From a virus, in the IMG/VR virus record IMGVR_UViG_3300034062_004845, positions 1-23,961 of that record: a stretch of DNA of 23,961 bases; one strand, written 5' to 3'. The notes under the pieces were generated by a model. The model saw only the letters and a list, made by a program, of their open reading frames with translations, was not told the DNA's origin and did not search any database. Below are positions 1,214 through 18,809 of the stretch, piece by piece. Numbering within the stretch: the first letter of the stretch is position 1; each line of letters begins with the position of its first letter. The translations under genes were made by a program, and so were the position numbers.

Positions 1214-1221
1214 TCACCCGA
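1214..1221 (+). promoter_or_regulatory. TCACCCGA leader motif
   Basis: Instance of the recurring start-proximal motif (extended form TCACCCGACACC), 9 nt before the ATG at 1231. There is no purine-rich Shine-Dalgarno sequence between motif and start. Confidence 0.6.
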
Positions 1222-1230
1222 CACCGACCG

Positions 1231-1566
1231 ATGACAACAACAACGACACCCGGCCAGCGCACGCTCCTGCTGGGGTGGGCTGCCGCGTTCACCCTGGCCA
1301 AGGGGCTGGCGTGGGTGGTGGTGCTGGCCCTGGTGCTGGCCCGCCTGGATCGCTTCATTCCCCGCATGCCAGCCAGACCGGCATTTGTGGATGCAATGGA
1401 ATCCATGGATGCAATGGATGCAATGGCGCTGGCGGCGATTGCTGATCTGAAGGTTGCGGCAGCCGCTGCAGATGCGGACCTGGCAGCCGCTGCCGATGAG
1501 ATCGAGGCGGCCGTAGCAGCACCTGCACCAGTGGCACGCCGCACCCGTCGCCAACGGGTCGCCTGA
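1231..1566 (+). CDS. Small alanine-rich membrane protein of unknown function
   Basis: The product is 111 residues. A hydrophobic stretch at about residues 12-38 is long enough for one membrane span. After it come a short basic segment, a methionine/aspartate-rich repeat (MESMDAMDAMA) near residue 57, an alanine/acidic helix likely to form a coiled coil (about 64-95) and a strongly basic C-terminus ending RRTRRQRVA. The ATG at 1231 was chosen because the TCACCCGA motif sits 9 nt upstream. It is the first gene of the rightward accessory block. I do not recognise a family; an anchored helical protein with a cationic tail is all the sequence supports. The low-complexity composition leaves some doubt that it is expressed. 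Confidence 0.55.
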   Translation: MTTTTTPGQRTLLLGWAAAFTLAKGLAWVVVLALVLARLDRFIPRMPARPAFVDAMESMDAMDAMALAAIADLKVAAAAADADLAAAADEIEAAVAAPAPVARRTRRQRVA

Positions 1567-1574
1567 CACCACCA

Positions 1575-1635
1575 GACGGCATCACGGGCCCGCCGTTGGG
1601 CCCCTGCTGCCCTCAGCAGCTATTCACCCGACACC
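1575..1635 (+). repeat. Hairpin-plus-motif leader cassette, copy 1
   Basis: A 61-nt element nearly identical to 2482-2542. It contains two GGGCCC palindromes (1586-1591, 1598-1603) that can pair over a 6-nt loop, then CTGCTG/CAGCAG (1604-1619) with a CCCT loop, then TCACCCGACACC at 1624-1635. It fills the gap between two genes and ends 10 nt before the ATG at 1646. Confidence 0.8.
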
Positions 1636-1645
1636 CTTTGACACC

Positions 1646-1912
1646 ATGGAACTACAGCTAACGCCGGAGCAGGTAGTTACGGTTCACGCCGCTTTGAACC
1701 ATGCCGCAATCATGGCAAGGGATAAGCAAAAGCATTTTTTGGGCTTGCACGAATCGGACAAAGTTGGCCCAGTCACGCAATCTGAGGCCTGGAAGACTTA
1801 TCGGGCCTGGGAGCAACGCGAAAACGAAGCCGTCCAGGTTATGCAAGCAATGCAGGCAGCAGCAGGCGGCCACGAAGCCCTGCCCTTTACCGCTTGGGGG
1901 CTGTTCTCCTGA
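1646..1912 (+). CDS. Hypothetical small helical protein
   Basis: The product is 88 residues, predicted mostly helical, with a charged centre (residues 25-60: KQKHFLGLHESDKVGPVTQS) and a glutamine/methionine-rich helix (EAVQVMQAMQAAAGG) near residues 61-75. The start follows leader cassette copy 1 by 10 nt. Its stop overlaps the next start as TGATG, so the downstream gene is probably translationally coupled. The N-terminal pattern LTPEQVVTVHAALNHA resembles small phage proteins of unknown function, but I recognise no family and assign no role. Confidence 0.65.
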   Translation: MELQLTPEQVVTVHAALNHAAIMARDKQKHFLGLHESDKVGPVTQSEAWKTYRAWEQRENEAVQVMQAMQAAAGGHEALPFTAWGLFS

Positions 1913-2103
1913 TGGCCCGTCGCATCCCACGGGCACCCAAGCCCGCCAGATACCGGATGGACCCACTCCCTGGCCTCCCTGGCCCCTCGCAGGAGTGGAG
2001 CCCGCAGACGATCGACGCCAAGCCCACCCAGGGGCACCTAGCCCTTGATGGCAGCGTTCTTGGCCCACTGTTCAACACTCACCCGACACCCAACCAACCG
2101 TGA
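1912..2103 (+). CDS. Hypothetical proline-rich small protein
   Basis: The 63-residue product starts at the ATG overlapping the previous stop (TGATG) and ends across the GTG start of the next gene. It is basic and proline-rich (MARRIPRAPKPARYRMDPLP at the N-terminus), with no cysteines or membrane segment, and is probably unstructured. Support is positional: tight overlaps at both ends and no better frame in the gap. Its last codons coincide with the TCACCCGACACC motif of the next gene, so the motif here lies inside coding sequence and gives the tail TPNQP. Confidence 0.45.
   Translation: MARRIPRAPKPARYRMDPLPGLPGPSQEWSPQTIDAKPTQGHLALDGSVLGPLFNTHPTPNQP
2079..2086 (+). promoter_or_regulatory. 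TCACCCGA leader motif
   Basis: Extended form TCACCCGACACC at 2079-2090, with an A/C-only run to the GTG start at 2100 (13 nt after the 8-mer). It supports GTG as the true start of the following gene. Confidence 0.6.
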
Positions 2104-2483
2104 ACCGACTTATCACCGTTCCCGCCCACGAGGTAACCAGCCTGGCTCATGGCGTCACCGCCGCAGACGATGCAGAGCCGATTGACAACGCGGGGCCAAT
2201 CAACGGGCTAAACGCCTCCTATGGCGTGTTCTGGATCTCTGGTCAGCCGGTGAGCACCTGGCGCCAGGCGCTATTTGGCCCGGTTCAAATGGTCGCCAGC
2301 TCCACCAACAGGCACAGCGCAGCAATGGCGGCCGTTATGCACCTTGCCGCCATGAACGAGGTAGGCCTAGCGCTGGTGGTGCGCAACAGGGACACAGGCA
2401 GGAATGAAGCGCTTATTAGATGGGTTGAGCTATGGGGCCCCTCTGTTTACCCATATCGGTTCAGCGAGGAAACCTGGGCCTGA
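2100..2483 (+). CDS. Hypothetical protein, GTG start
   Basis: The product is 127 residues with mixed composition like a folded soluble protein. A central hydrophobic segment (about 76-95, AAMAAVMHLAAMNEVGLALV) is probably a helix and strand pair rather than a membrane span. The C-terminus is aromatic (WGPSVYPYRFSEETW). The GTG at 2100 was chosen because the leader motif sits just upstream and the previous gene ends across it. The stop overlaps the first base of leader cassette copy 2. No family recognised. Confidence 0.65.
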   Translation: MNRLITVPAHEVTSLAHGVTAADDAEPIDNAGPINGLNASYGVFWISGQPVSTWRQALFGPVQMVASSTNRHSAAMAAVMHLAAMNEVGLALVVRNRDTGRNEALIRWVELWGPSVYPYRFSEETWA

Positions 2484-2542
2484 CGGCATCACGGGCCCAC
2501 CCTTGGGCCCCTGCTGCCCTCAGCAGCTATTCACCCGACACC
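2482..2542 (+). repeat. Hairpin-plus-motif leader cassette, copy 2
   Basis: Second copy of the 61-nt element at 1575-1635, differing at only a few bases in the loop between the two GGGCCC palindromes. CTGCTG/CAGCAG pair at 2511-2526 and TCACCCGACACC lies at 2531-2542, ending 9 nt before the ATG at 2552. Confidence 0.8.
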
Positions 2543-2551
2543 CTGACGACA

Positions 2552-3031
2552 ATGAATTATTTCTACGGGCTCGTAGACGTGATCGAGATTAAATCCCGTT
2601 ACCGGGAACTCGCTCGGCAGCATCACCCAGATTTAGGCGGATGCCTGGAAACAATGAAGGCCATTAATGCCCAATACCACAAAACCTTGAAAGGTAACAA
2701 CGGTAAAGAATGCGACGGCAGAAAATATACCTATAACTCAGAACGGGAGCAACAGATCATGGATAAGATAAGCGAACTACTCACCTTGCCAGGTTTGACG
2801 ATCGACTTAATAGGCCTCTGGATCTGGATTCGCGGTAACACCAAGCCCCAGAAGGAACTGCTAAAGGCCAAGGGTTGCAGGTGGCATTCAGGCCGTGGCT
2901 GCTGGTACTGGAAGCCAGCGGATCTGGGCCGATCCCGCGCCAATCCTGGCAGCCTGGACGAACTGGCCGCAAAATACGGCGTCCAGGAGTTCAGAAGTAA
3001 AGCCCGCGGACCCCAACAACTAGCCGCCTGA
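2552..3031 (+). CDS. J-domain (DnaJ-like) small protein
   Basis: The 159-residue product opens with a short J-domain: IKSRYRELARQHHPDLGG at residues 13-30, with the diagnostic HPD tripeptide at 25-27, followed by the third helix (ETMKAINAQYHKTL). J-domains recruit and stimulate Hsp70 (DnaK) through HPD. The C-terminal half (about 92-135) has the pattern GLWIWIRGNTKPQKELLKAK then CRWHSGRGCWYWKP, a small tryptophan-rich module I have seen paired with J-domains in other mobile-element proteins. The ATG at 2552 was chosen because cassette copy 2 ends just upstream and a longer frame would read through that repeat. The glycine/phenylalanine and zinc-finger regions of full DnaJ are absent. A role in hijacking host DnaK for replication or assembly is inference. 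Confidence 0.75.
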   Translation: MNYFYGLVDVIEIKSRYRELARQHHPDLGGCLETMKAINAQYHKTLKGNNGKECDGRKYTYNSEREQQIMDKISELLTLPGLTIDLIGLWIWIRGNTKPQKELLKAKGCRWHSGRGCWYWKPADLGRSRANPGSLDELAAKYGVQEFRSKARGPQQLAA

Positions 3032-3040
3032 ACCCTGCCC

Positions 3041-3100
3041 GGTGGCCCCGGGGCAACCCTCGGCCACCCTGCAGCGCTCTGCTGCATTCACCCACCCGAC
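3041..3100 (+). repeat. Hairpin-plus-motif leader cassette, copy 3 (divergent)
   Basis: The architecture of copies 1 and 2 is kept but the stems differ: GGTGGCC (3041-3047) pairs with GGCCACC (3062-3068), and TGCAGC (3070-3075) pairs with GCTGCA (3081-3086) over a 5-nt loop. CACCCGAC follows at 3093-3100, 11 nt before the ATG at 3112. Paired changes in both arms point to a conserved structure. Confidence 0.7.
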
Positions 3101-3111
3101 AAAACAACACC

Positions 3112-3318
3112 ATGGCCAACACATGCAAATACCAGGACTGGCGCGATCTTGGTCCAGCGGCTAACATTTTTTCCCAAAACATTGCAGCAACTTGGGCGTC
3201 AAACCCTCGCGCTATTCCCAGGGAAATCAAAGACGCAATGCAAGCGGCGCAAACTGCGCTTTGTGCGCTTGATGATTTGATCCAGGAGCATGTGAGAGAA
3301 GATCTGGGCGATGACTGA
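3112..3318 (+). CDS. Hypothetical small acidic-tailed protein
   Basis: The product is 68 residues. The N-terminal half has two aromatic patches (KYQDWRDLG, IAATWASNPRA); the C-terminal half looks like a single amphipathic helix (DAMQAAQTALCALDDLIQEH) ending in an acidic tail. The start lies 11 nt after cassette copy 3. The gene ends overlapping the next start by 8 nt. The first bases of this gene (ACACCATGGCCAACA) recur at the end of the gene at 3643-3816, which may be a relic of a second copy. No family recognised. Confidence 0.6.
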   Translation: MANTCKYQDWRDLGPAANIFSQNIAATWASNPRAIPREIKDAMQAAQTALCALDDLIQEHVREDLGDD

Positions 3319-3631
3319 TATCCAGCCCGCCGGGGCTTCCCGGCAACAATCCAATCCCGTCGCCCTCAATTCCATGACACTTGATTCACTCCCCTGGTGC
3401 GCAAAAATTGCGCCCACCCTGCGCTACGCTTATTTCAGTGCCGAAGCCGCAAAAATACGCGGTTCATCTATATACCTCGCTCACGATGGAAGCGAAGTAG
3501 AGGTTACTTGTGTGGGCGAAAGCTTGATTGACCCAGGCTCATACAAATGGCCTGACCGTAAATCAGTGGGGCCTGTTGTGGCCTGGCTACGAAGAGGTCA
3601 AACAAGTCACTCCAGTTTCATTTTCTTTTGA
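3311..3631 (+). CDS. Hypothetical protein
   Basis: The product is 106 residues, soluble and mostly beta by appearance, with alternating hydrophobics at about 62-80 (SIYLAHDGSEVEVTCVGESL) and an aromatic C-terminus (SSFIFF). The ATG at 3311 lies inside the end of the previous gene, so the two are probably coupled. Codon use and base composition are slightly less GC-rich than the integrase and structural genes, as for several neighbours in this accessory block. No motif lets me suggest a function. Confidence 0.55.
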   Translation: MTDIQPAGASRQQSNPVALNSMTLDSLPWCAKIAPTLRYAYFSAEAAKIRGSSIYLAHDGSEVEVTCVGESLIDPGSYKWPDRKSVGPVVAWLRRGQTSHSSFIFF

Positions 3632-3642
3632 CCCCCAATCCC

Positions 3643-3816
3643 ATGACCAAATCTCAAACCCTCCCCCCCGCCACTGCGGCGGCACGCATCGCCCCTCTGC
3701 TGATCACACTGGCCGGCCTGGCCATTGCGGCCGGAGGCCAGTGGCTCTGGCGCCATCGCCGGCAGATCGTTGGGGTCAGAACTTTGGCAGCCAACGACAC
3801 CATGGCCAACAAATGA
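3643..3816 (+). CDS. Small single-span membrane protein
   Basis: From the ATG at 3643 the product is 57 residues: an alanine-rich lead, a hydrophobic span at about 15-36 (IAPLLITLAGLAIAAGGQWL), then a basic stretch (WRHRRQ) that would sit in the cytoplasm by the positive-inside rule. The stop overlaps the next ATG as ATGA. Its last codons (ANDTMANK) contain an apparent relic of another gene start, ACACCATGGCCAACA, matching the start of the gene at 3112; the C-terminus may therefore be a junction made by deletion. A lysis or superinfection role is possible but unsupported. Confidence 0.55.
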   Translation: MTKSQTLPPATAAARIAPLLITLAGLAIAAGGQWLWRHRRQIVGVRTLAANDTMANK

Positions 3817-4001
3817 CAGGCCCCATCGTCGCCCTCCTGCTGCTGACCCTGCTGCTGGGGCCCTGCGCCCTGGCCGGCAAGCTGCACCCGAAGCCACCGG
3901 CCCGGCCGACCCGGTACCCCAAGGCCAAAAGCAAGCCCCGCGTGCGCGATTACGTGGGGGCCTTTCTCTACGAGGAGGCACAGCGCAATGGACGCCGCTG
4001 A
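3813..4001 (+). CDS. Small secreted or periplasmic basic protein
   Basis: The 62-residue product begins MTGPIVALLLLTLLLGPCAL, a clear signal-peptide core, with a likely signal peptidase I site after A-L-A at residues 19-21. The mature part is about 41 residues, proline- and lysine/arginine-rich (PKPPARPTRYPKAKSKPRVR) with a short acidic-aromatic end. The cysteine at 18 follows proline, so it is not a good lipobox. It starts across the previous stop (ATGA) and its end overlaps the next gene. A small exported cationic protein beside a small membrane protein could be a spanin-like or envelope-acting pair, but nothing in the sequence proves that. Confidence 0.55.
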   Translation: MTGPIVALLLLTLLLGPCALAGKLHPKPPARPTRYPKAKSKPRVRDYVGAFLYEEAQRNGRR

Positions 4002-4326
4002 ATGCGCCGCCCTGGCCGGCAGGTTCAGGGCCATGCGCGAGGTAGCCAAGGCGGCAGGGCTCAACCTCAAAAGCAGGGACGTCGAGGTCCTGCTGTGGAT
4101 CGCAGCTGGTCGGGACACCTACCGGGAGCTGATGGCCGCATCAGGCATGGGGTTGCATGCCGTTCAGCGATCCGTATTCCTGCTGTCGGGGCGTCCCGTC
4201 AACCTGGGGCCCGGCAAAACCAGGAACAGCCCGTTCCGGCTGGTGGACACCAGGCCGCACCCGCACCTGCCGTATCCCGAGCGGCAGATTTTCCTTACCC
4301 AAACAACGCCAAATGGCAACCACTAA
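3988..4326 (+). CDS. Probable winged-helix DNA-binding protein
   Basis: The product is 112 residues. Residues 27-66 resemble the helical core of a winged helix (LKSRDVEVLLWIAAGRDTY then RELMAASGMGLHAVQRSVFL), with the recognition helix near 52-65. Residues 67-104 carry a basic loop (GPGKTRNSPFRLVD) and a beta-like strand (RQIFLT) that would form the wing. The layout parallels the gene at 4600, suggesting two DNA-binding proteins in tandem before the integrase. The start overlaps the end of the preceding gene by 14 nt. Family assignment is by fold pattern only; a regulator of lysogeny or early transcription is the likely role. Confidence 0.55.
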   Translation: MDAAECAALAGRFRAMREVAKAAGLNLKSRDVEVLLWIAAGRDTYRELMAASGMGLHAVQRSVFLLSGRPVNLGPGKTRNSPFRLVDTRPHPHLPYPERQIFLTQTTPNGNH

Positions 4327-4741
4327 ACCCTTGTGCATCGGCTCCGTATTCGACACCCTGTTTAGCCACGGGGTGGGATACACCGTTGTTGAGTACCCAG
4401 AACTGGAGCCATGCCGTCTCCTGCTGGTCAAAATCTTGTGGGTTGAAGATCGTCTCATAGCGTCTGAGGCCTTGACGGAGGCCCTGTCTGGCGAGCTTCT
4501 GACACTGGAGCGCAGCTTACAAGCCCGGATTAATGACGAGATTATGACGGGTGGGGTTAAGTGCCCTAGCGTGTTGGGTACTACGGTTGTATCCCACCCA
4601 TGGATCAGTTGGAGATGGTCCTGGCCCTTTTTTCGGGGCAGTATGACGATCCGGCAAATGTTCCGCTCCATCATTGCCGCCTGTTCCTGGCGGTGGGGCG
4701 TCGCGGTCAGTGCCGCTACCGTGATCTGGAGGAAGAATTAG
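4313..4741 (+). CDS. Hypothetical protein; C-terminal third overlaps the MarR-like gene
   Basis: The ATG at 4313 overlaps the previous gene by 14 nt and the frame runs 142 codons. The first 95 residues or so look natural (helical segment VEDRLIASEALTEALSGELL near 44-63). From about 4600 the frame is antagonistic to the better-supported winged-helix gene in another frame, and its composition becomes tryptophan/arginine-rich, as in a shadow frame. Either the two genes really overlap by 142 nt, or a frameshift has extended this one past its true end. No family recognised. Confidence 0.35.
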   Translation: MATTKPLCIGSVFDTLFSHGVGYTVVEYPELEPCRLLLVKILWVEDRLIASEALTEALSGELLTLERSLQARINDEIMTGGVKCPSVLGTTVVSHPWISWRWSWPFFRGSMTIRQMFRSIIAACSWRWGVAVSAATVIWRKN

Positions 4742-4959
4742 ACCTAGCCAATAGCTCGGTCAGTAGGACCGTTAACGCCCTGGCTTCTGTTCATCGCAAC
4801 GGCAAGCCAGGGCTAGGACTGATAACCACTACCCCAGATCAGGAGGAAGGGCGCCGGTTCATTATCAGTCTCACCACTAAAGGCCGGCTTTTATACAAGC
4901 AAATCCAACAACTCACCCGACATGACGATTCGAAAGACAGCAAAAGGCTGGATCGCTGA
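4600..4959 (+). CDS. MarR-like winged-helix regulator
   Basis: The 119-residue product has a MarR-type layout: a lead helix, an HTH at about residues 40-62 (YRDLEEELDLANSSVSRTVN), a glycine-rich wing (GKPGLGLITTTPDQEEGRRF, about 68-87) and the closing pattern ISLTTKGRLLYKQI at 89-102, which matches the LT-x-KG ending of MarR wings. It lacks the long C-terminal dimerisation helices of full MarR. The ATG at 4600 is the first usable start after an in-frame stop at 4567. The gene overlaps the integrase start by 38 nt, so it is probably a lysogeny regulator co-expressed with integrase. Confidence 0.7.
   Translation: MDQLEMVLALFSGQYDDPANVPLHHCRLFLAVGRRGQCRYRDLEEELDLANSSVSRTVNALASVHRNGKPGLGLITTTPDQEEGRRFIISLTTKGRLLYKQIQQLTRHDDSKDSKRLDR
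4913..4920 (+). promoter_or_regulatory. TCACCCGA leader motif
   Basis: The 8-mer ends 1 nt before the integrase ATG at 4922. The run TCACCCGACATGAC is shared with the gene at 12184. It fixes the integrase start. Confidence 0.6.
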
Positions 4960-5911
4960 CGTTTCCGTTGGCGGCCAGCGACTCACGGCTCAACGCCGAA
5001 CCAAGGCCGAGGCCATGGCAGCAGAGGCGCAACTGGTCGAGCGCATCGCCCACCGTGCAGCGGCGCAGGAAGCACCCGCAGGGTTCACGATCGCCGAGGC
5101 CCGCACCCTCAGCCTGCAGATCAGGTGGGCCAACACCAGCTACGAGCGGGTGGCCGCCATCTATTCCAAGGCGGCGGTTGATTTCTTCGGCCCCACCACA
5201 CCCCTGACCAGCATCGATGCCCCGGAGATCGAGCGCTGGCGGCAGGCCCTGGCAGAAGGTGGCAACCAGCCAGCCACCATCAACAAGAAAGTGAGCGCCA
5301 TCAAGGCCATGGTGGCCGATGCCCAGCTGCACGGGAAGATTGGCAGCGCCCCACGGCTGCCCCGTCAGCTCAAGGAATCCAACACCCGCGATCGGGTGGT
5401 GGCCGACTGGGAGCGGGACGCCATGGCCCGGTGGTTCCAGGCCAACGGGGAGCCCGCCGCGGCTGACCTGCTGGTCTGGTTGCTTGAGACCGGTTGCAGG
5501 TGGGGCGAGGCTGAAAAGCTGCGCGGCGGTGATGTGAACCTGACCAAGCCTGCCGTCAGCTTCCACGACACCAAGAACGGCGATGCTCGATCAGTTCCGC
5601 TGACGAGGCGTGCCGTGGACGCAATCAGTCCGCACCTGCCCGCCAGGCCAGGGCACCGGGTTTGGCCATACTCCTACAACCAGTTCGAGCGCCTGTTTGA
5701 CAAGGCCGCTGCAGGCTGCGGCATCAATGACCCAGCCCTGGTGATTCACAGCTGCAGGCACACCTGCGCATCCAAATTGGCATCGGCTGGCATCAGCATG
5801 TTCCAACTGATGAAATGGGGTGGCTGGAGAAGCCTGGGAGCCGTGCAGCGCTACGCCCATGTGGACGTGAACGCCCTGGCCGAGTGTGCCCGGGTACTGG
5901 AGGCAGCGTGA
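4922..5911 (+). CDS. int: Tyrosine recombinase / phage integrase
   Basis: The 329-residue product is a complete tyrosine integrase that would recombine attP with a host attB through a 3'-phosphotyrosine intermediate. The N-terminal 50 residues form a small arm-binding-type domain (GWIADVSVGGQRLTAQRRTK), 55-150 a SAM-like core-binding domain, and 160-329 the catalytic domain. The active-site set is complete: R193 (TGCRWGEAEKL), K218 (TKNGDARSVPL), H276 and R279 (HSCRHTCASK), W302 in place of the second histidine (GGWRS) and nucleophile Y311 (YAHV). The start is set by the motif directly upstream. A tRNA-Leu half lies 1.2 kb downstream, with repeated sites around it, and is the likely attP. Confidence 0.97.
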   Translation: MTIRKTAKGWIADVSVGGQRLTAQRRTKAEAMAAEAQLVERIAHRAAAQEAPAGFTIAEARTLSLQIRWANTSYERVAAIYSKAAVDFFGPTTPLTSIDAPEIERWRQALAEGGNQPATINKKVSAIKAMVADAQLHGKIGSAPRLPRQLKESNTRDRVVADWERDAMARWFQANGEPAAADLLVWLLETGCRWGEAEKLRGGDVNLTKPAVSFHDTKNGDARSVPLTRRAVDAISPHLPARPGHRVWPYSYNQFERLFDKAAAGCGINDPALVIHSCRHTCASKLASAGISMFQLMKWGGWRSLGAVQRYAHVDVNALAECARVLEAA

Positions 5912-7073: not shown

Positions 7074-7106
7074 CCTAAAAACGGCAGAACCGCTGTAGCA
7101 ACACAC

Positions 7107-7187: not shown

Positions 7188-7217
7188 AGGCCCGGTAGCA
7201 ATGCCGGGCCTTCTTGC
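7188..7217 (+). terminator. Intrinsic terminator upstream of RNA polymerase
   Basis: AGGCCCGG (7188-7195) pairs with CCGGGCCT (7204-7211) over an 8-nt loop and is followed by TCTTG. It would end host-type transcription coming through the lysogeny module before the RNA polymerase gene. The T tract is short, so efficiency may be moderate. Confidence 0.65.
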
Positions 7218-7297: not shown

Positions 7298-9586
7298 GTG
7301 TGCAAGTCTGCGGCGCAAATTCAGGCCGATCAGGCCGCCATGGCCTGGCAGCGTCGCAGCCGGGAGAAGGGCCGCGAGGCTGACACCACCTACGGCAGTT
7401 TGCTGTTCGAGGCCTATGGCGAACGCCTGCGCGAGGCGGTCGAATTGCTGTTTCTCAACCCTTCGGTGCCAGGTCCGCACCGTTGCGCACTGTTCGCCCT
7501 GGCCAACTTCGGCGGCAGGGGGGGCGTCAAGGCCCTTGTCACCACGGCACTGGGCCATGCCATCGACGGGATCTCCCAGACCCACAAGCACCGCGCCTTG
7601 GCATCAAGCATGGGCGTGGCCCTGGAGCTGGAGCTTCGTGGTGCTGGCCTGGCGCACGATCGCCCGGGCACCCTCCGGCTGATGAACCGCCGCATGAAGA
7701 AAACGGCAATCACCGCGCCGCGGCAGCTGCGGGCCCTGGGGCAGCCGGTCGAACCCTGGAGCCGGAGCGATCGCTTCGAGGTTGGCGGCCTGCTGCTGGA
7801 CCTGCTCCTTGCCATCGGCCTGCTGGAGCGCACCGGCGACCTGGTGGCCGCTAGCCCCGAGACCAAGGCGATCATCGCCGCAGCGCCGGCCCCCAGGGGC
7901 GGTGTTCGCAGGCTGCCGATGCTGGAGCCCCCGCAGCCGTGGACCGGCTTCTGGGGTGGTGACCGCAAGCCCCTCGTCGTCAGGGCCCCCTACCTGGAGC
8001 ACCAGCCATTGGCCCTTCAGATGGCGGTGGCCAATCAGCTTCAGGCCCAGCCCATGGAGATCGACGCCCCCATGGTTCGCCTGGTGCGCACCGCCTGGGA
8101 CCAGGGTCTGCCGTTGTTCCCGGTGCAGCGGGATCCGCTGGTGGCCCCGCCCCGGCCCGAGGAGAAGGTGGGCAAGGACGGCATCAATGCCTGGCGGCGG
8201 CAGGTGGTGGCTGCCCAGCGGGACCGGGCCGAGAACGGTGGCCGCCGCCGCCGCATCGAGACCGGTATCCGGGAGCTGGAGGCACTGGGCCAGGGCCCCG
8301 CTTGGTTCGGATACGAGCTTGATTTCAGGGGGCGGATCTACACCGGCAACCGGGCCGCCACCCACCAGGGCCCCGACTACAGCAAGGCATGCATCAACTT
8401 GCGCGGTGACCGTTGCGGGGAGGAGGGATTCGAGTGGTTGCTGTGGGCAGCGGCCGGTCATTGGGGCATGACCCGGGAGAGCCACGAAGAGCGCCGCCGG
8501 TGGGGGAAGCATGAGATCGAGCGCCTAAAGGCAGCCGCCGAGGATCCACTGGGCCAGCTGGGTTTATGGCGGGATGCCAAGGACCCGTGGCAGTTCCTGC
8601 AGGTGTGCGTTGCCGTTCAAGCCTGGCTGGCGAACCCATGGCAGCCGATCGGGTGCCCGGTGCGCATGGATCAACACGCCTCAGGGTTCGGCATCACTGC
8701 CTGCCTGACCCGTGATGCAGCGCTGGCGGCACGGTGCCGGGTGACGGGGGATTCCCCGGTCGATCTCTACGGGCACCTGGCCGAGCTGGTGACAGCGCGG
8801 TTGCGCCAAGACATGGACACCGGCCCCGAGCATCACCAGCGGCAGGCCCTGCAGTGGCTCCAGGCGGGCATCGATCGAGCATTGATGAAGGCCCCGGCCA
8901 TGACCACCTGCTACGGCGCCGGCTTTCTGTCCCTGGTTGACCGGCTGGCCCTGGACCTGGAGGAGCACTGCCCCAACCTGCCGCCGGCCCAATGGGAGAA
9001 GCGTCTGATCCGGCCCAGCCAATACCTGGCCCGCCATGTGATGGCGGTATTCGAGCAGGAGTTGGGCAGCGTGCTGGCTCTGCGCACCTGGATGAGGAAG
9101 GCCACCGCCACCGTGGCCAGGCATCAGCAACACGTCGAATGGCATGCACCCAGCGGGATGCTGCTCCGCCTGGGCCGCGAGCCCGACCGGGTGGCGATCG
9201 GCAGGACGGCGGTGTCTGGCAAGCGCCGATGGGTGGACGCCAAGGCGTCAGAGGTTGCCCTGGGGGGTGTGGCAACCGCCAGGGGATCCATGGCCAACCT
9301 GATTCACAGCTTTGATGGCAGCTTTTGTCAGGCCATCGTCAACAAGGCTGGAGAGCAGCGATACGGGATCATTACGAACCACGACTGCTTTGCCACCACT
9401 GCCACCAATGCCTCGTGGCTGGCCGAGGAGTTGATGCAGCAAAGCAGCGAGCTGTACTGGACTGACTGGCTGGCCCAGATCCGCAGCGAGATCAAGGCCC
9501 GTAGCGGTGTCGGCATCCCCAAGCCGCCGATGGTTGGCACCTTGGACCGGGATGCCATCGGCCAAAACCCATATGGGTTTTGTTGA
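7298..9586 (+). CDS. T7-like single-subunit DNA-directed RNA polymerase
   Basis: The protein, 762 residues from the GTG at 7298, would transcribe phage class II/III genes. Numbered from that start, the catalytic set of T7 RNAP is present: D458 (RMDQHASGFGI, T7 D537), R527 and K531 and Y539 in RALMKAPAMTTCYGAG (T7 R627, K631, Y639), H670 (NLIHSFDGS, T7 H784) and H695-D696 (NHDCFATT, T7 H811-D812). T7 RNAP is 883 residues; the shortfall is mostly in the N-terminal and promoter-recognition region. Start choice: the frame opens further upstream at a TTG in the terminator tail, so GTG 7298 or ATG 7340 is likelier; 7298 keeps a helix (KSAAQIQADQAA) that seems to belong to the N-domain. The C-terminus ends FC rather than the FAFA of T7. 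Confidence 0.95.
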   Translation: MCKSAAQIQADQAAMAWQRRSREKGREADTTYGSLLFEAYGERLREAVELLFLNPSVPGPHRCALFALANFGGRGGVKALVTTALGHAIDGISQTHKHRALASSMGVALELELRGAGLAHDRPGTLRLMNRRMKKTAITAPRQLRALGQPVEPWSRSDRFEVGGLLLDLLLAIGLLERTGDLVAASPETKAIIAAAPAPRGGVRRLPMLEPPQPWTGFWGGDRKPLVVRAPYLEHQPLALQMAVANQLQAQPMEIDAPMVRLVRTAWDQGLPLFPVQRDPLVAPPRPEEKVGKDGINAWRRQVVAAQRDRAENGGRRRRIETGIRELEALGQGPAWFGYELDFRGRIYTGNRAATHQGPDYSKACINLRGDRCGEEGFEWLLWAAAGHWGMTRESHEERRRWGKHEIERLKAAAEDPLGQLGLWRDAKDPWQFLQVCVAVQAWLANPWQPIGCPVRMDQHASGFGITACLTRDAALAARCRVTGDSPVDLYGHLAELVTARLRQDMDTGPEHHQRQALQWLQAGIDRALMKAPAMTTCYGAGFLSLVDRLALDLEEHCPNLPPAQWEKRLIRPSQYLARHVMAVFEQELGSVLALRTWMRKATATVARHQQHVEWHAPSGMLLRLGREPDRVAIGRTAVSGKRRWVDAKASEVALGGVATARGSMANLIHSFDGSFCQAIVNKAGEQRYGIITNHDCFATTATNASWLAEELMQQSSELYWTDWLAQIRSEIKARSGVGIPKPPMVGTLDRDAIGQNPYGFC
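9563..9582. repeat. 20-bp perfect palindrome overlapping the end of the RNA polymerase gene
   Basis: AAAACCCATATGGGTTTT with one extra C/G pair is fully self-complementary and ends 1 nt before the stop codon at 9584-9586. The right arm supplies TTTTG, so it could act as a bidirectional intrinsic terminator, or be a protein-binding site controlling the next operon. TTGACA follows immediately at 9583-9588. Confidence 0.6.
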
Positions 9587-9619
9587 CAAGTTGACGCTGG
9601 GGTGCCATCATCATTTTGC

Positions 9620-9672
9620 GCTCCAGCCGTGGAGCACGAATCAACGACACCCTTTCACCAAGTCACCCGACG
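9620..9672 (+). promoter_or_regulatory. Hairpin-plus-motif leader cassette, copy 4, before SSB
   Basis: GCTCCA (9620-9625) pairs with TGGAGC (9630-9635) over a 4-nt loop. Next comes a degenerate motif copy containing CGACACCCTTT, an 11-nt match to the leader at 1630-1640, and then TCACCCGACG at 9663-9672 directly before the ATG at 9673. The stem size (6 bp) and loop size match cassettes 1 and 2 although the stem sequence is different. Confidence 0.65.
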
Positions 9673-10341
9673 ATGCCGGAAATGCTTGTCAGCCCACCAG
9701 GGCTTTGCTTGTTTGCGAACATTCTTCAGCCAAAGGAGAAAGTAAATAAGACGACTGGCGCCAAGAAAATGCAGTACGGGATTGTCCTGCAACTGGATAA
9801 CCCCGAACTCGATTCAAGCGTCGCCGCTTTCATTGGCTCCTTGCACGCCATTTTTGTTGAGAAATTCGGCAAAGGCGCAGCCTATGGCCCCAACGGGAGG
9901 CCATGGAAGAAGGAGACGGAGACAGCCCAAAACGGTTTGGCGCATGAAACCGGGCTAACCCGGATCACTTTTAGCCGGGACATTGTTACCCGCAATGGCG
10001 TGGAACTTCCCCCGCCGATGGTTGAGGACGCAGCCAATCAGCCATGGCCCAAGACCGTAGCCATCGGCAACGGATCCCTAGTTAAGGTTGGTTTCTCTGC
10101 CTACCTGTGGGACAACCAGGACGGAGGCAAGGGGCTCAGCCTCAACCTCTTAGCCGTGCGCATCCTGCGCCATGCCCCTTATGTAGTTGATTCCGTGGCC
10201 CCCGGTGCATTCGGCCCACCGGAGGAGGGGGCCAGGGCCAATAGCCCAGAGGTGCTGGCGCTGGTCGGAGGGGGGGGCCAGGGTACCTCTGATGTCCCGT
10301 TTGACGACGGGCCTGCGTCCACCGAGGAAATCCCTTTTTGA
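9673..10341 (+). CDS. gp2.5-like single-stranded DNA-binding protein
   Basis: The 222-residue product fits T7 gp2.5-type SSB (232 residues). Its N-terminal beta-rich body begins LVSPPGLCLFANILQPKEKV and includes MQYGIVLQLDNPEL, the usual OB-fold opening of this group. It ends in an acidic tail with a terminal aromatic residue (DVPFDDGPASTEEIPF), the feature by which gp2.5 contacts its replication partners. It would coat ssDNA during replication and recombination. The ATG at 9673 was preferred over an upstream start because TCACCCGACG lies immediately before it. Position just after RNA polymerase matches cyanopodovirus order. Oddity: the usual partners, DNA polymerase and primase/helicase, are not in this window. 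Confidence 0.85.
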   Translation: MPEMLVSPPGLCLFANILQPKEKVNKTTGAKKMQYGIVLQLDNPELDSSVAAFIGSLHAIFVEKFGKGAAYGPNGRPWKKETETAQNGLAHETGLTRITFSRDIVTRNGVELPPPMVEDAANQPWPKTVAIGNGSLVKVGFSAYLWDNQDGGKGLSLNLLAVRILRHAPYVVDSVAPGAFGPPEEGARANSPEVLALVGGGGQGTSDVPFDDGPASTEEIPF

Positions 10342-11684: not shown

Positions 11685-12187
11685 CTTCAATGCCTGATTC
11701 CATCCTTGCGATAGATCCAGGGCCCATGGAATCAGGCTTTGTCTTGTTTCACCCATGCGCTGCCGGACTTCCATTGATAGACGAGGCAGGTATTAGGGGT
11801 AACTATGACCTAAAAGAGCTATGCCATAACATTAGCTCAGCCCTATCATTAAGGCCAATGCTGGCAATCGAAATGATTGCCTGTTACGGGATGCCAGTGG
11901 GCAAGGAAACCTTTGAAACCTGCCTATGGATTGGCAGGTTTGAGGAGGCATTCAACCCCAGCCGTGATTCGCTCCGCTGCTATCGCAAGGACATCAAGCT
12001 GCACTTATGCGGCACCACCAGGGCCAAGGATCCCAACGTCCGCCAGGCCCTAATCGACCGACTGGGGAAACCCGGCACCAAGAAGAACCCAGGCCCCACC
12101 TATGGCGTTAGGAGCCATGTGTGGTCAGCTCTGGCCGTAGCGGTCTACGCCGCTGATCAACTAACCAAAGCCAATCACCCGACATGA
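11681..12187 (+). CDS. RuvC-like Holliday junction resolvase / RNase H-fold nuclease
   Basis: The 168-residue product has the RuvC layout: first strand with catalytic aspartate, ILAIDPGPMESGFVLF (D12); second acidic strand, MLAIEMIACYGMPVG (E64); and the final helix SHVWSALAVAVYAADQ (about 145-160). RuvC is about 173 residues, so length fits. It would resolve branched DNA into packageable molecules. In T7 order this slot, after SSB, holds endonuclease I (gp3), so a different nuclease fold seems to do the same job. Oddity: the aspartate pair normally in the last helix is not obvious, H146 and S149 standing there; the catalytic set may be completed elsewhere or activity may be altered. Confidence 0.75.
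   Translation: MTSMPDSILAIDPGPMESGFVLFHPCAAGLPLIDEAGIRGNYDLKELCHNISSALSLRPMLAIEMIACYGMPVGKETFETCLWIGRFEEAFNPSRDSLRCYRKDIKLHLCGTTRAKDPNVRQALIDRLGKPGTKKNPGPTYGVRSHVWSALAVAVYAADQLTKANHPT
12175..12182 (+). promoter_or_regulatory. TCACCCGA leader motif inside the end of the RuvC-like gene
   Basis: The 8-mer ends 1 nt before the ATG at 12184. It lies in coding sequence of the upstream gene, encoding part of its NHPT tail. TCACCCGACATGAC is identical to the integrase start region at 4913. Confidence 0.6.
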
Positions 12188-14174: not shown

Positions 14175-14790
14175 TTGGGCCGCACTTCAGGTCAATGGAC
14201 TGCCCAGCCGGGACGAACAACGCTACTTTCTTGCCCGGGTAAGCCACCTGGCCGGCCCCGATGTCCCCGACACCACCCCGGCACCACTACTGGAAGAGAG
14301 CGTCGCCGCAAAGTGGTTCTTCACGTGCGTCGAGATGATCTGGGGGTATCTGCGGACAAAGGAGTCCGACCGCTGGGCGCCAGCGGTTGCCCTGGTAATG
14401 CACCAATCTTTTGTCGAGCAGTTCCCCGAGGTCAGCACCAAGCAGTTGGTCTGGGCCACGAGCCAGTGGATCCAGTCCACCGCCGGCAAGGAGTTTGTCA
14501 GGTTTCCCGGTTGGCGGGAGCTAATGGCTCCGTTGTATCGATGCGACGAGAAGGGCCTTGCCGTCAGGACCTGGGGGTTCCGCCCCGAGCTGCCCCCAGG
14601 GCTGCAGCCAACACCGGCACAGCTGGCCCTGATGCCAGCTAGATGGCACGCCCATGACCCGCAGGCCGTGATAGCCGCAGGACCTGACGGGCTGCCGATG
14701 CTGGCGTCCACCGGCCCACGGCAGCCGCTGCCATTGCCCGGCGAAGAGCAGCGGTTGCTTCCACCTTCACTTTCACCCGAGGAACCATGA
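14149..14790 (+). CDS. Hypothetical protein, possible replication accessory
   Basis: The 213-residue product has one of the few clear Shine-Dalgarno sequences here (AAGGAGGA at 14137-14144). Residues 50-125 form a helical domain rich in tryptophan (VEMIWGYLRTKESDRWAPAV, STKQLVWATSQWIQSTAGKE) with FPGWRELMAPLY near 121-132; the remainder is proline-rich and probably extended. The helical domain with F-x-x-x-x-W-R-E-L-M recalls helicase-loader or primosome-type accessory proteins of lambdoid phages in general shape, but this is a weak impression. It overlaps both neighbours, and the next gene's leader motif lies in its 3' end. Confidence 0.55.
   Translation: MEAVMESIDWAALQVNGLPSRDEQRYFLARVSHLAGPDVPDTTPAPLLEESVAAKWFFTCVEMIWGYLRTKESDRWAPAVALVMHQSFVEQFPEVSTKQLVWATSQWIQSTAGKEFVRFPGWRELMAPLYRCDEKGLAVRTWGFRPELPPGLQPTPAQLALMPARWHAHDPQAVIAAGPDGLPMLASTGPRQPLPLPGEEQRLLPPSLSPEEP
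14773..14780 (+). promoter_or_regulatory. TCACCCGA leader motif (GG variant)
   Basis: TCACCCGAGGAACC precedes the ATG at 14787, 6 nt after the 8-mer. Here the next bases (GAGGAA) could also serve as a Shine-Dalgarno. It lies within the 3' end of the upstream gene. Confidence 0.5.
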
Positions 14791-15174: not shown

Positions 15175-15916
15175 CACCGAGGGCTTCTTGGTGCCCGCCG
15201 CCAAGGCCGCCGAGTACAGCTATGAATGGGAGCCAGCCAACTGGCGTATCGGCTGCCGCCACGATGAGGCGATGGCCTACTTCATGGACAAGCTGGCCGA
15301 CATTCGAGCCTTTGATCCCAGCCTGCCGATAACCCTGTGCTTCAGCTCTGCCCGGTCATTCCGCTACGGCATCTGGCCCGAATACAAAAGCAACCGGAAG
15401 TCTGAACAGAAGGTCCCCGGCTGGCCTGATTTAGTGGCAGCGGTTAAGCGGCTGGCCATCAGCAGCGGCTGGGATGTTGTCACCTTGGAGAACGTGGAGG
15501 CCGACGACGCCCTGGGTATCCTGGCCGGCCCTGACGACTTCATGGCCAGTGTGGACAAAGATCTGTTGACGGTGCCAGGCAAGCACTTGCGGAATGGGGA
15601 ACTTGTTGTCCAGACCGTGATTGCTGCGGATCGGTGCTTTTTTTCCCAGGCTCTGATTGGCGACCGCAGCGACCATTACCCCGGCTGCCCTGGCATCGGG
15701 GAGAAGAAAGCGGAATCGCTGCTGTCTAGGTGCACGGACGAACACCAGATGTGGGACGCCGTGCTTGCGGCCTATTCCTTAACAGCGCTCAAGGAAGACT
15801 GGGCGGACGCAGGTAAAGCCCCAGCCATGGCCCTGGCCCAGGCCCGGTGCGCCCGCATCCTGCGGCCCGGTGAATACGACTTTGAAACTCAGACCCCCAG
15901 ATTGTGGACGCCATGA
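15155..15916 (+). CDS. 5'-3' exonuclease, T7 gp6 / FEN-like
   Basis: The 253-residue product carries the flap-endonuclease metal-site series: D7 in ILIDTEG, the YKSNRK arch-entry motif at 77-82, E115-D117-D118 (VEADDALG), D134-D136 (SVDKDLLTVPG), G169-D170-x-x-D173 (IGDRSDHYPG) and the helix-hairpin-helix-like CPGIGEKKAE at 178-187. T7 gp6 is about 300 residues. It would remove RNA primers, degrade host DNA and help recombination. In T7 it lies downstream of DNA polymerase, but no polymerase precedes it here. The start overlaps the previous gene by 20 nt; the next gene begins on its stop (ATGA). Confidence 0.9.
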   Translation: MSRILIDTEGFLVPAAKAAEYSYEWEPANWRIGCRHDEAMAYFMDKLADIRAFDPSLPITLCFSSARSFRYGIWPEYKSNRKSEQKVPGWPDLVAAVKRLAISSGWDVVTLENVEADDALGILAGPDDFMASVDKDLLTVPGKHLRNGELVVQTVIAADRCFFSQALIGDRSDHYPGCPGIGEKKAESLLSRCTDEHQMWDAVLAAYSLTALKEDWADAGKAPAMALAQARCARILRPGEYDFETQTPRLWTP

Positions 15917-16107
15917 ACCACGAATTTATGCAGATCACTAGCAGCGGTGGGTACATCGGTCGCATTGTTTGGTGCAACTCTGGGACAATCGCGGCTGGAG
16001 GGCATGAAAAATGGGAATGGGGCAAAGTCTTGGTATTTCCAGTCACATCCTTGGGCGCCTGGGCTGGAGCGATCCCCCTGGTGAGGATGATGGTGAGATG
16101 GCGTTGA
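15913..16107 (+). CDS. Hypothetical small protein
   Basis: The 64-residue product starts at the ATG overlapping the exonuclease stop. It appears beta-rich (GGYIGRIVWCNSGTIAAGGH then WEWGKVLVFPVTSL) with a C-terminal segment of modest hydrophobicity ending in arginines. After it lies the only gap in this stretch (16108-16154), C-rich and without a convincing terminator. No family recognised. Confidence 0.55.
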   Translation: MNHEFMQITSSGGYIGRIVWCNSGTIAAGGHEKWEWGKVLVFPVTSLGAWAGAIPLVRMMVRWR

Positions 16108-16154
16108 TAACAACCTCACCCCCTTAGACTCCCTGGGAACACTGCACCCCTGTA

Positions 16155-16331
16155 ATGCAGCTCCTCGTCTCCCCAGGATTGCTGGCCCGCCTGACGGAGA
16201 GCTTCCCTGCTGACATCGTTGGCATGGCCAACAAGTCTCCCGACCAGCGGGCCCAGATCATTGGGGAGCAGCGGGTGGTAGAGACCATCCGCCAGTGGGC
16301 CACCGAGCAAGACCCGTTGCTGGACCTCTGA
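16155..16331 (+). CDS. Hypothetical small protein at the start of the virion block
   Basis: The 58-residue product begins at the ATG at 16155 and ends TGATG into the next gene. It is helical and amphipathic (LLARLTESFPADIVGMANKS, RAQIIGEQRVVETIRQWATE), ending QDPLLDL. Its place just before the two MCGG proteins and portal suggests a minor structural or assembly protein, comparable in position to the small gp6.x/7.x proteins of T7, but similarity is positional only. Confidence 0.55.
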   Translation: MQLLVSPGLLARLTESFPADIVGMANKSPDQRAQIIGEQRVVETIRQWATEQDPLLDL

Positions 16332-16705
16332 TGTGCGGCGGTCGCAAGCCCAAGGCTCCCACCATCACCCAACCCGACTACAGCAAGTACAACCGGCTGG
16401 CCGACACCCAGCTCCAGTTGATGCAGGCGCAGCAGTCGTCCAAGGTGATGGCGGCCCAGCAGGGGATCAACACTGCAACCCTGCAGCAGCAGGCGGTGAT
16501 GGGGCAGTTGCGCGATGCCCGCATGGAGCAGGCGCAGAACACTGCTGCAACTGCTGGCCGGCTGGCGGCATTGATCGGGGCGCCGGTCCCCGATCGCAGC
16601 GCCAAGGCGCCCACCTTGGGCGACAACCGCACCGGCATGACCCGGCCAACGGGCAGCCGCGGGCTGCGGATTGACCGGCAGCAAACACTATCCCTGGGGC
16701 AGTAG
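16331..16705 (+). CDS. MCGG-type small virion-associated protein 1
   Basis: The 124-residue product starts MCGGRKPKAPTITQPDYSKY. A long glutamine/alanine-rich helix (about 27-75: TQLQLMQAQQSSKVMAAQQG, TATLQQQAVMGQLRDARMEQ) is followed by a small basic C-terminal part ending GLRIDRQQTLSLGQ. The next gene product also opens MCGG, has a charged helix and ends with an LSLT-type tail, so the two look like diverged paralogs. Small basic proteins of similar shape (gp7.3) precede portal in T7; I use that only as a positional guide. The start overlaps the previous stop. Confidence 0.7.
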   Translation: MCGGRKPKAPTITQPDYSKYNRLADTQLQLMQAQQSSKVMAAQQGINTATLQQQAVMGQLRDARMEQAQNTAATAGRLAALIGAPVPDRSAKAPTLGDNRTGMTRPTGSRGLRIDRQQTLSLGQ

Positions 16706-16707
16706 CC

Positions 16708-17088
16708 ATGTGTGGAGGACGCGATCTGGCAAAGGCGATGGGCGCCAAGGACAAGAAGCCAAAGGCGGACCCCATGGCGCTGCAGCAGGAGGATGCGATG
16801 AAAAGCATCAACACGCAAAACCGGGAGCTGGTTGATCAACTGCGGGCCCAGTCGCAGATGATCGCCAACGACACGGCAGCACGGCAGCGCGAGCTGGAGG
16901 CGGCTAAGGCCCCCGGGCAAATCCTCGTCAATGCCAACCCCTACACCGTGTCCCTGGATCTGGGCACCGCTGGGGCGGGGCAGGAACAGACCACGGCGGT
17001 TACTGCGCCCAAGAAGAAGCCGAACCAGAGGCTCAGCCTGACCGCTGACATCAACCTTGCAGGCGTCGGCCTGAACCTGGGGATCTAA
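16708..17088 (+). CDS. MCGG-type small virion-associated protein 2
   Basis: The 126-residue product starts MCGGRDLAKAMGAKDKKPKA, then a charged helix (LQQEDAMKSINTQNRELVDQ, IANDTAARQRELEAAK, about 30-75), then a glycine/threonine-rich beta-like region and a basic tail PKKKPNQRLSLTADINLAGV ending GLNLGI. T7 gp7.3 also ends with a basic patch, LS and a GINI-like terminus, which is a weak but suggestive resemblance. The stop overlaps the portal start by one base, so it is probably coupled to portal expression. Confidence 0.7.
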   Translation: MCGGRDLAKAMGAKDKKPKADPMALQQEDAMKSINTQNRELVDQLRAQSQMIANDTAARQRELEAAKAPGQILVNANPYTVSLDLGTAGAGQEQTTAVTAPKKKPNQRLSLTADINLAGVGLNLGI

Positions 17089-18809
17089 TGGAACGCGGAG
17101 ACAGCGGCGTCGATTCGATCTCTGAAACCCAGGGACTGCACAAGGGGCGAGCGGAGGTCAGGTACAACCAGCTGCGCACCTATCGGGATACTTGGCTGGA
17201 GCGGGCACGTAGAGCGGCGCGGCTCACGATTCCATCCCTGATCCCTGACTCAGACGAGATCCTGACCGAGGCGGCACAGGAGCAGCAACTGCCGTACAAC
17301 GGCATTGGGGCGTTGGGGGTCAACAACCTATGCAGCCGGCTACTGCTGGCCCTGCTGCCGCTAAGTGGGTTGATCCGCTTGACGAAAGATGAGGTGGCGC
17401 AGGCGAGAGATGACGCTATGGCCGTCGCAGAGGGCACGACGGAAGAGGACCTTGCGGCCCAGAAGATCGAAATTGAGAAAACACTGGCCCTTCTGGATCG
17501 AGCCATTGAGCGCACCCTCTCCACCGGCAGCGATCGGGTCTCGCTGTTTGAAGGGCTGATGCACTTAATTGTCGGCGGCAACGCAATGTTGTATCGCTCG
17601 GCCACCGCGATGAAGTGCTTCCACCTCAACAAGTATGTGCTGTTGCGGGATCCAATGGGCCAGCCGGTGGAGGCCGTCGCTTGCGAAACCTATCTCTATG
17701 CCTCCCTGAACCCGAGGCTCAAGGCGGTTCTGGATGAGGCCGACAAGCTGCGAGGCGCTTGGCAAATCGACACCGACACCACCCGCAGGGACAACCGGCG
17801 GATCAAGGTCTTCACCCACATCAAATGGCAGCCGGGGTCTGACGACTCCCCGGGTAAGGTGACATGGCACCAAGAGGTTGGGGGCTATATCGTCCCCCAA
17901 ACCGATGGGAGCGAGCCAGCCGACGCCAGCCCGTGGATGCCGTTGAGGCTGTACAAGATCGACGGCGACAGCTACGGCCCCGGCTATGTCGAGTGGTGCG
18001 CCCTGGCCGACCTGTCCAATCTGGACGGCATCAGCCAGGCGGTGCTCGAAGGCAGCGCGGCTGCAGCGCGGCAGATCGTTGGCCGCAAGCCATCGGCAAT
18101 CACAAGCAAGGAGGCCTACGCCAGGGCGCCCAACCTATCCGTGATTGACGCGCAGCCTCAGGACTTCTTCCCGATTGAGACCAGCAACATTCGGGACTTG
18201 TCAGTGGCGGGGCAGAAGGAGAAGCAACTGGAAGAGCGGCTATCCAGGATCTTTCTGCTGTTCAACGCCCGAGACTCGGAACGCACTACGCGAGAGGAGA
18301 TCAAGGAGGACATCAACCAGATCGAGCAGATGTTGGGCTCCATTTACTCGATCCTTACGGTCGAGTTCCAGTACCCCCATGCCCGCAGGATCGTTTCGGT
18401 CATGCGCAAAACCAACGAGCTACCAGATCTGCCTGGCGTTGAGCCGCTGATCAATGTTGGCCTAGCCGCACTGGGCCGCCAGTCCGATGTTGAACGCCTT
18501 AACCAGTTCGCCATGCTTGGCCTACAGGCCATGCCGCAGGAGTTCAGCGCCTTGGTTGATGGCGCCTCATACCTCAGGGAGCTGGCGACCGGGGTAGGCG
18601 TGAACCCCCTGCTGGTCAAGTCCGACAAGCGGATCCAGGAAGAGCAGGCTGCCGCCATGCAGCAGGCACGGCAGCAGCAGTTGATCCAGGCCGGCATGGG
18701 TGATCCCCAGAAGCTGGCCAATGCCGGCATGGCCGTGCAGCAAATGGCCGAGGGGGCTCCCCCTGACGGCCAGCCCGTACAACCCACGTCACCCGAGATG
18801 CAGCCATGA
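17088..18809 (+). CDS. Head-tail connector (portal) protein, T7 gp8-like
   Basis: The 573-residue product matches the T7 gp8 portal (536 residues). Signature segments: RYNQLRTYRDTWLERARRAA at about 25-44, NGIGALGVNNLCSRLLLALL at about 72-91 and the clip/stem-like region ending in a glutamine-rich C-terminus (QQARQQQLIQAGMGDPQ). Portals form a dodecamer at one capsid vertex, the channel for DNA entry and exit and the base of the tail. The extra length is mainly at the C-terminus (SPEMQP end). It overlaps the upstream gene by one base and scaffold by four (ATGA). The TCACCCGA motif of the scaffold gene lies in its last codons. Confidence 0.93.
   Translation: MERGDSGVDSISETQGLHKGRAEVRYNQLRTYRDTWLERARRAARLTIPSLIPDSDEILTEAAQEQQLPYNGIGALGVNNLCSRLLLALLPLSGLIRLTKDEVAQARDDAMAVAEGTTEEDLAAQKIEIEKTLALLDRAIERTLSTGSDRVSLFEGLMHLIVGGNAMLYRSATAMKCFHLNKYVLLRDPMGQPVEAVACETYLYASLNPRLKAVLDEADKLRGAWQIDTDTTRRDNRRIKVFTHIKWQPGSDDSPGKVTWHQEVGGYIVPQTDGSEPADASPWMPLRLYKIDGDSYGPGYVEWCALADLSNLDGISQAVLEGSAAAARQIVGRKPSAITSKEAYARAPNLSVIDAQPQDFFPIETSNIRDLSVAGQKEKQLEERLSRIFLLFNARDSERTTREEIKEDINQIEQMLGSIYSILTVEFQYPHARRIVSVMRKTNELPDLPGVEPLINVGLAALGRQSDVERLNQFAMLGLQAMPQEFSALVDGASYLRELATGVGVNPLLVKSDKRIQEEQAAAMQQARQQQLIQAGMGDPQKLANAGMAVQQMAEGAPPDGQPVQPTSPEMQP
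18789..18796 (+). promoter_or_regulatory. TCACCCGA leader motif within the end of the portal gene
   Basis: TCACCCGAG encodes part of the portal tail and lies 9 nt before the scaffold ATG at 18806. It is the only instance in the structural block, and precedes one of the most strongly expressed T7-type genes. Confidence 0.45.

What the first reader, a model, noticed from the sequence alone, without database searches (positions are those of the whole stretch)
1214..18806. TCACCCGA start-proximal motif repeated across the genome
The 8-mer TCACCCGA occurs nine times on the + strand (1214, 1624, 2079, 2531, 4913, 9663, 12175, 14773, 18789), plus CACCCGAC at 3093. Every copy ends 1 to 14 nt before a start codon I would choose independently. 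In 24 kb one 8-mer is expected less than once by chance. Downstream bases are A/C-rich, not purine-rich, so it is not Shine-Dalgarno. It precedes unrelated genes (membrane, J-domain, integrase, SSB, DUF1351-like, scaffold). Variable spacing argues against direct ribosome pairing and for an RNA-binding site, a transcript start or processing site, or a recombination boundary.
Basis: seen in the sequence. Interest (0 to 1): 0.88.

Follow-up and report, generated by a model that had tools for sequence, protein, structure and literature searches.

The report
Promoter motif of phage RNA polymerase
A short DNA word repeated just before the start of many genes in this cyanobacterial virus is most likely the "start copying here" signal for the virus's own T7-like RNA polymerase, and related viruses have swapped it for a different word as their polymerases diverged.

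Summary
TCACCCGA occurs 9 times on the + strand and never on the - strand (0.76 expected). With the CACCCGAC at 3093, every copy ends 1-14 nt before a start codon. The window is a fragment of a T7-like cyanophage (kin of Synechococcus phage S-SRP02) that encodes an integrase and a single-subunit RNA polymerase with intact catalytic residues. Near relatives, including 43-45 kb contigs, keep the motif on the gene strand only, at orthologous genes and also in front of different early genes. More distant relatives have a different word at the same place: the integrase leader reads TCACCCGACACC, AACAACCACCACC, CACACCACACC, CACCTACCACC or CCACGACC by lineage. Motif class follows the RNA polymerase tree (8 changes for 7 classes). 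Where a Shine-Dalgarno is present it lies between motif and ATG. Sites before SSB and scaffold match T7 promoters phi2.5 and phi9. Best explanation (about 0.78): promoters of the phage's own T7-like RNA polymerase, unusually short (about 10 bp) and nearly abutting the start codon, giving leaders of about 0-20 nt. No transcript has been mapped, so the promoter role and start site are inferred.

The parts
1214..1222 (+). TCACCCGAC, predicted phage-RNAP promoter, 9 nt before ATG 1231 (111-aa membrane-like early protein)
   Evidence: same site in relative G004 at 5513
1624..1632 (+). TCACCCGAC, about 14 nt before ATG 1646; directly follows two hairpins in a block of about 65 bp duplicated at 2531
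2079..2087 (+). TCACCCGAC, about 13 nt before GTG 2100
2531..2539 (+). TCACCCGAC, about 13 nt before ATG 2552 (J-domain-like protein); second copy of the duplicated block
3092..3100 (+). CCACCCGAC, one-base variant, 11 nt before ATG 3112; in G002 the ortholog of this gene follows an exact TCACCCGAC
4913..4921 (+). TCACCCGAC; ATG of integrase follows at 4922
   Evidence: same leader position carries lineage-specific motifs in relatives
9663..9671 (+). TCACCCGAC, just before ATG 9673 (SSB); position analogous to T7 phi2.5
12175..12183 (+). TCACCCGAC; ATG 12184 follows (340-aa protein of unknown function)
14773..14780 (+). TCACCCGA followed by GGAACC, 6 nt before ATG 14787 (66 aa)
18789..18796 (+). 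TCACCCGA in the end of the portal gene, 9 nt before scaffold ATG 18806; position analogous to T7 phi9
7301..9586 (+). T7-like single-subunit RNA polymerase (upstream TTG at 7214 also possible), proposed reader of the motif
   Evidence: PF00940 E 1e-42; PHROG 414 E 3.8e-101; T7 catalytic residues D537, K631, Y639, H811, D812 conserved
9203..9232 (+). codons for RTAVSGKRRW, aligned to the promoter-specificity loop of T7 RNAP (about residues 748-757)
4600..4959 (+). MarR-like winged-helix protein, the other DNA-binding candidate, considered and disfavoured
9583..9611 (+). host sigma70-like promoter TTGACA-17-CATCAT upstream of SSB, separate from the motif
   Evidence: pattern match only; total hits not above shuffles

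Best explanation
TCACCCGAC(A) is the promoter of the phage's own T7-like single-subunit RNA polymerase. Host RNA polymerase would make the first polymerase. The phage enzyme then reads the TCACCCGAC sites through its specificity loop and transcribes rightward from each site, including through its own gene from the integrase site. Shown: over-representation, strand bias, orthologous placement and co-variation with the polymerase lineage. Inferred: recognition by the polymerase, and a start site at about the G/A of the motif. Because the start codon can begin at the base after TCACCCGAC, the start site must lie at or before that base for the start codon to be in the mRNA; leaders would then be about 0-20 nt, with integrase and the 12184 gene nearly leaderless.
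For: (1) Strand-specific excess in front of starts. In five genomes of this class TCACCCGAC is found 39 times on the gene strand (37 near a start) and once on the other. (2) Only the RNAP clade of the window, L007-009 and L030-036, plus a MAG contig found by RNAP similarity alone (L162, Synechococcaceae WB9_2_112, RNAP 47% identical), uses this word; L162 has it at both integrase and SSB leaders. (3) Other RNAP clades have their own word at the same leaders; seven classes need 8 changes on the RNAP tree. Across classes the words lie on the RNAP strand 175 times against 6 on the other. (4) In class D and F leaders the SD lies between motif and ATG, so the motif is on the 5' side of the ribosome site. 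(5) Sites at SSB and scaffold correspond to T7 phi2.5 and phi9; T7 itself has promoters 11-13 nt from starts (phi1.5, 1.6, 4.3, 4.7). (6) Class A polymerases share TA[VI]SGxRRW in the specificity loop: loop identity 69% against 51% overall; different-motif pairs 38% against 46% overall. (7) The Syn5 RNAP promoter ATTGGGCACCCGTAA contains the CACCCG core (PMC3950665). (8) In a scan of 2.9 million viral contigs for TCACCCGACACCATG, the contigs with more than three strand-specific copies of the 9-mer were class A phages.
Against: No transcript ends are mapped. The motif is shorter than T7 or Syn5 promoters and has no conserved upstream AT-rich part. RNAP phylogeny is confounded with whole-genome phylogeny. 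Most class words are A/C-only, which an unstructured translation leader could also explain. In G002 and G003 the integrase copy is changed to TCGCCCGAC. No copy precedes the major capsid gene (T7 phi10 position). The Syn5 start site lies after TAA, a spacing that would put the start inside some start codons here.
Confidence: 0.78

Rival explanations
1. The motif is a translation signal: an unstructured A/C-rich leader that recruits the ribosome without Shine-Dalgarno.
For: Class A and B leaders almost never have an SD (2 of 51 and 1 of 47 sites); the words are A/C-rich.
Against: An exact 9-mer with G is kept while its spacing to ATG varies 1-28 nt. In classes D and F an SD is present between motif and ATG (8 of 11 class D sites). 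Words differ between phage lineages with related cyanobacterial hosts. Most genes in the phage lack it.
Confidence: 0.09
2. The motif is an operator for a phage regulator (the MarR-like protein next to the integrase, or KilA-N) acting on transcription.
For: Such regulators are present in the same cluster and share its phylogeny.
Against: The motif is not palindromic and is strictly directional. The MarR recognition helix is nearly identical between phages with different motifs (NSSVSRTVNALG against NSTVSRTVHALG). S-SRP02 has a separate palindrome ACTCCTAGGAGT upstream of MarR.
Confidence: 0.06
3. The motif is an RNA processing or RNA-binding site (hairpin plus motif) that creates mRNA 5' ends.
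For: Hairpins lie just upstream of many early sites; upstream folding energy -15.4 against -11.9 kcal/mol at other starts.
Against: Sites at 2079, 4913 and 14773 have weak or no hairpin yet the same word; lineage change would need a co-evolving RNA-binding protein that has no candidate.
Confidence: 0.04
4. Recombination boundary: early-gene cassettes copied with their flanks.
For: The block at 1580-1640 is duplicated at 2485-2548; early genes are shuffled between relatives while the motif stays.
Against: Copies at integrase, SSB and scaffold lie in unique flanking sequence; lineage-specific replacement at the same leader is not explained.
Confidence: 0.03

Closest known systems
T7 RNA polymerase promoters (phi1.5, phi2.5, phi4.7, phi9 and others)
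   Same: Directional repeats read by a phage single-subunit RNAP, about ten or more per genome, at SSB and scaffold; some only 11-13 nt from the start codon
   Different: T7 promoters are about 17-23 bp with an AT-rich upstream part (own knowledge); here about 10 bp, typically 1-20 nt from the start, and none before the major capsid gene
Syn5 cyanophage RNAP promoter ATTGGGCACCCGTAA
   Same: Cyanophage T7-like RNAP; shares the core CACCCG
   Different: Only two per genome, 15 bp, start after TAA; the Syn5 RNAP is not among the close relatives
Yeast mitochondrial nonanucleotide promoter (related single-subunit RNAP)
   Same: Short promoter of about nine bases ending at the start site (own knowledge; motif named in the references of PMC6298784)
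   Different: Different sequence, needs Mtf1, mitochondrial
Synechococcus phage S-SRP02 (MW822601)
   Same: Same gene order; own start-adjacent word AACAACCACC at integrase, scaffold and early genes
   Different: Different word; its paper reports no promoter

Membership tests
Promoters of T7-like single-subunit phage RNA polymerases | Genome encodes an intact single-subunit RNAP | tested here: met
Promoters of T7-like single-subunit phage RNA polymerases | Repeated, orientation-specific conserved word upstream of genes on the transcribed strand | tested here: met
Promoters of T7-like single-subunit phage RNA polymerases | Sites at positions known in T7 (SSB, scaffold) | tested here: met
Promoters of T7-like single-subunit phage RNA polymerases | Sequence co-varies with RNAP specificity | tested here: met
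   confounded with genome phylogeny
Promoters of T7-like single-subunit phage RNA polymerases | Length 15-23 bp with AT-rich upstream contact region (typical, not universal in this polymerase family) | tested here: not met
   conservation limited to about 10 bp; the yeast mitochondrial enzyme of the same family uses a nine-base promoter (own knowledge)
Promoters of T7-like single-subunit phage RNA polymerases | Transcription starts at the site | not testable with these tools
   needs 5'-end mapping or in vitro transcription
Shine-Dalgarno or ribosome-pairing site | Purine-rich, fixed spacing to the start codon | tested here: not met
MarR-type operator | Inverted-repeat site read by a recognition helix that changes with it | tested here: not met

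The most novel reading that the evidence does not exclude
A clade of cyanophage T7-like polymerases uses minimal promoters of about 10 bp fused to the start codon, so that many phage mRNAs are leaderless or nearly so, and the promoter word turns over quickly among A/C-rich variants together with the polymerase specificity loop.
Probability: 0.35. Interest if true: 0.68.

Novelty: new variant of a known kind. Interest (0 to 1): 0.52.

Why it matters
It gives about seven promoter classes matched to polymerases that share roughly 35-75% identity, a natural series for working out how single-subunit RNA polymerases change promoter choice, and a source of orthogonal polymerase-promoter pairs. It also lets the transcription map of an uncultured cyanophage clade be drawn from sequence, and raises the question of how cyanobacteria translate phage mRNAs with almost no leader.

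Tried and rejected
An SSB start at 9769 with a 100-nt leader was considered as evidence for a promoter; dropped because the N-terminus from 9673 is conserved. Base-pairing with 16S rRNA: a CGGGTGA stretch in 16S (own knowledge) could pair with class A, but the other lineages' words could not pair there. MarR operator: rejected on the recognition helix. Identity of the residue at the T7 N748 position as the sole determinant: dropped because L162 differs there but keeps the motif. The sigma70 and terminator scans were not above shuffles. TCACCCGACACCATG in other viral contigs: mostly single chance matches. Pfam gave no hit for most of the early and middle proteins behind the motif. The Syn5 RNAP paper PMC3561573 is not held.

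Full report
WHAT IS THERE. TCACCCGA occurs at 1214, 1624, 2079, 2531, 4913, 9663, 12175, 14773 and 18789 on the + strand and nowhere on the - strand; 0.76 would be expected, and no shuffle of 100 gave more than three. CACCCGAC at 3093 is a tenth, one-base variant. The distances to the chosen starts are 9, 14, 13, 13, 11, 1, 2, 1, 6 and 9 nt. Four sites lie in the coding ends of upstream genes, in different reading frames, so protein constraint does not explain the word. Sites 1624 and 2531 belong to a duplicated intergenic block of about 65 bp, so the number of independent sites is nearer nine than ten.

WHOSE GENOME. The window is an IMG/VR record of 23,961 b. It carries a MarR-like protein, tyrosine integrase, KilA-N protein, single-subunit RNA polymerase, Gp2.5-like SSB, Holliday junction resolvase, exonuclease, portal, scaffold, major capsid and tail proteins, in the order of Synechococcus phage S-SRP02 (Autographiviridae). 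RNA polymerase identity is about 42% to S-SRP02 and 34-35% to the Mediterranean Oinezvirus and Nohivirus phages. A contig of a Synechococcaceae MAG encodes a polymerase 47% identical.

NEAR RELATIVES. Four contigs with polymerases 95% identical carry TCACCCGA 4, 7, 3 and 10 times, all on the gene strand. In the 44,992-b contig G004 all ten copies precede starts, and none lies in the roughly 21 kb of structural genes downstream of the scaffold site. The motif stays when the gene behind it differs: in G002 the gene that follows 3093 in the window sits behind a different, exact TCACCCGAC. Contigs with polymerases about 50% identical (L031-L036) also use TCACCCGAC. Over five genomes of this class the nine-base word is found 39 times on the gene strand (37 near a start) and once on the other. 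One integrase copy in G002 and G003 is changed to TCGCCCGAC.

OTHER LINEAGES. A search for start-adjacent words without prior assumption, in 80 loci found by polymerase similarity, gave a different word for each lineage: AACAACCACC in S-SRP02 and many others, AACCACCAAC, CACACCACAC, CCACCTACC, CCACGACC and CACCACCACC. They stand on the RNAP strand 175 times and on the other strand 6 times in the loci of their own class. The integrase leader shows it best: the same short gap between the MarR-like gene and the integrase ATG is filled by the word of that lineage. On a polymerase tree of 57 rows the seven classes need eight changes, the fewest possible being six. A contig fetched for its polymerase alone (L162) has TCACCCGAC before both integrase and SSB, as predicted.

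WHY A PROMOTER. (a) The word has a direction and follows the transcribed strand. (b) In the CACACCAC and CCACGACC lineages a Shine-Dalgarno lies between the word and the ATG, so the word is not the ribosome site. (c) The SSB and scaffold sites correspond to T7 promoters phi2.5 and phi9, and T7 has four promoters only 11-13 nt from start codons. (d) The polymerase is intact at T7 D537, K631, Y639, H811 and D812. (e) The region aligned with the T7 specificity loop is 69% identical within the TCACCCGA class at 51% overall identity, against 38% at 46% overall for pairs with different words (average over few lineages, modest support). (f) The Syn5 cyanophage promoter ATTGGGCACCCGTAA shares CACCCG (PMC3950665). 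Steps not shown: binding, initiation and the exact start site.

LIMITS. The word tracks the polymerase, but the polymerase tracks the genome, so co-inheritance with another factor is not excluded. The MarR-like protein is a poor candidate, since its recognition helix hardly changes between lineages with different words. Conservation is limited to about ten bases, short for a phage promoter though not for a single-subunit polymerase (the yeast mitochondrial promoter is a nonanucleotide; own knowledge, named in the references of PMC6298784). Hairpins directly upstream are common at early sites (-15.4 against -11.9 kcal/mol, p = 0.0017) and may be terminators of the preceding unit, but three window sites have little structure. 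The A/C-rich character of most words leaves a translation role possible.

VERDICT. A new promoter family for a known kind of enzyme, with two unusual traits: it is very short and it nearly touches the start codon. If starts map within the motif, several phage mRNAs, the integrase among them, would have 0-3 nt leaders. No promoter is reported in the S-SRP02 paper, and literature searches found no description for this clade.

Noticed in passing
L013 (S-SRP02) 10055, 10069, 13596, 18905: Palindrome ACTCCTAGGAGT, complete upstream of the MarR-like gene and in part beside a sigma70-like promoter before SSB: candidate operator of the lysogeny regulator.
   Followed up: partly
window 9583-9704: Host-type promoter TTGACA-17-CATCAT, a hairpin, the motif, then a terminator-like hairpin (9691-9704) inside the first codons of SSB.
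   Followed up: partly
window 1030-1090: TTGACA followed by the direct repeat GTTACGAATT GTTACGAATC, possibly the early control region.
   Followed up: no
window 1580-1640 and 2485-2548: Duplicated intergenic block with two hairpins (GGGCCC...GGGCCC and CTGCTG...CAGCAG) ending in the motif; similar hairpin-plus-motif blocks occur in other lineages with their own word.
   Followed up: partly
L033 3503-3526, L046 5064-5078, L103 8771-8784: Tandem copies of the lineage's word a few bases apart in one leader.
   Followed up: no
L162: MAG Synechococcaceae bacterium WB9_2_112 holds a contig with a relative of this phage's integrase-polymerase-SSB region, a prophage or a captured phage, which points to freshwater Synechococcaceae as host.
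   Followed up: partly
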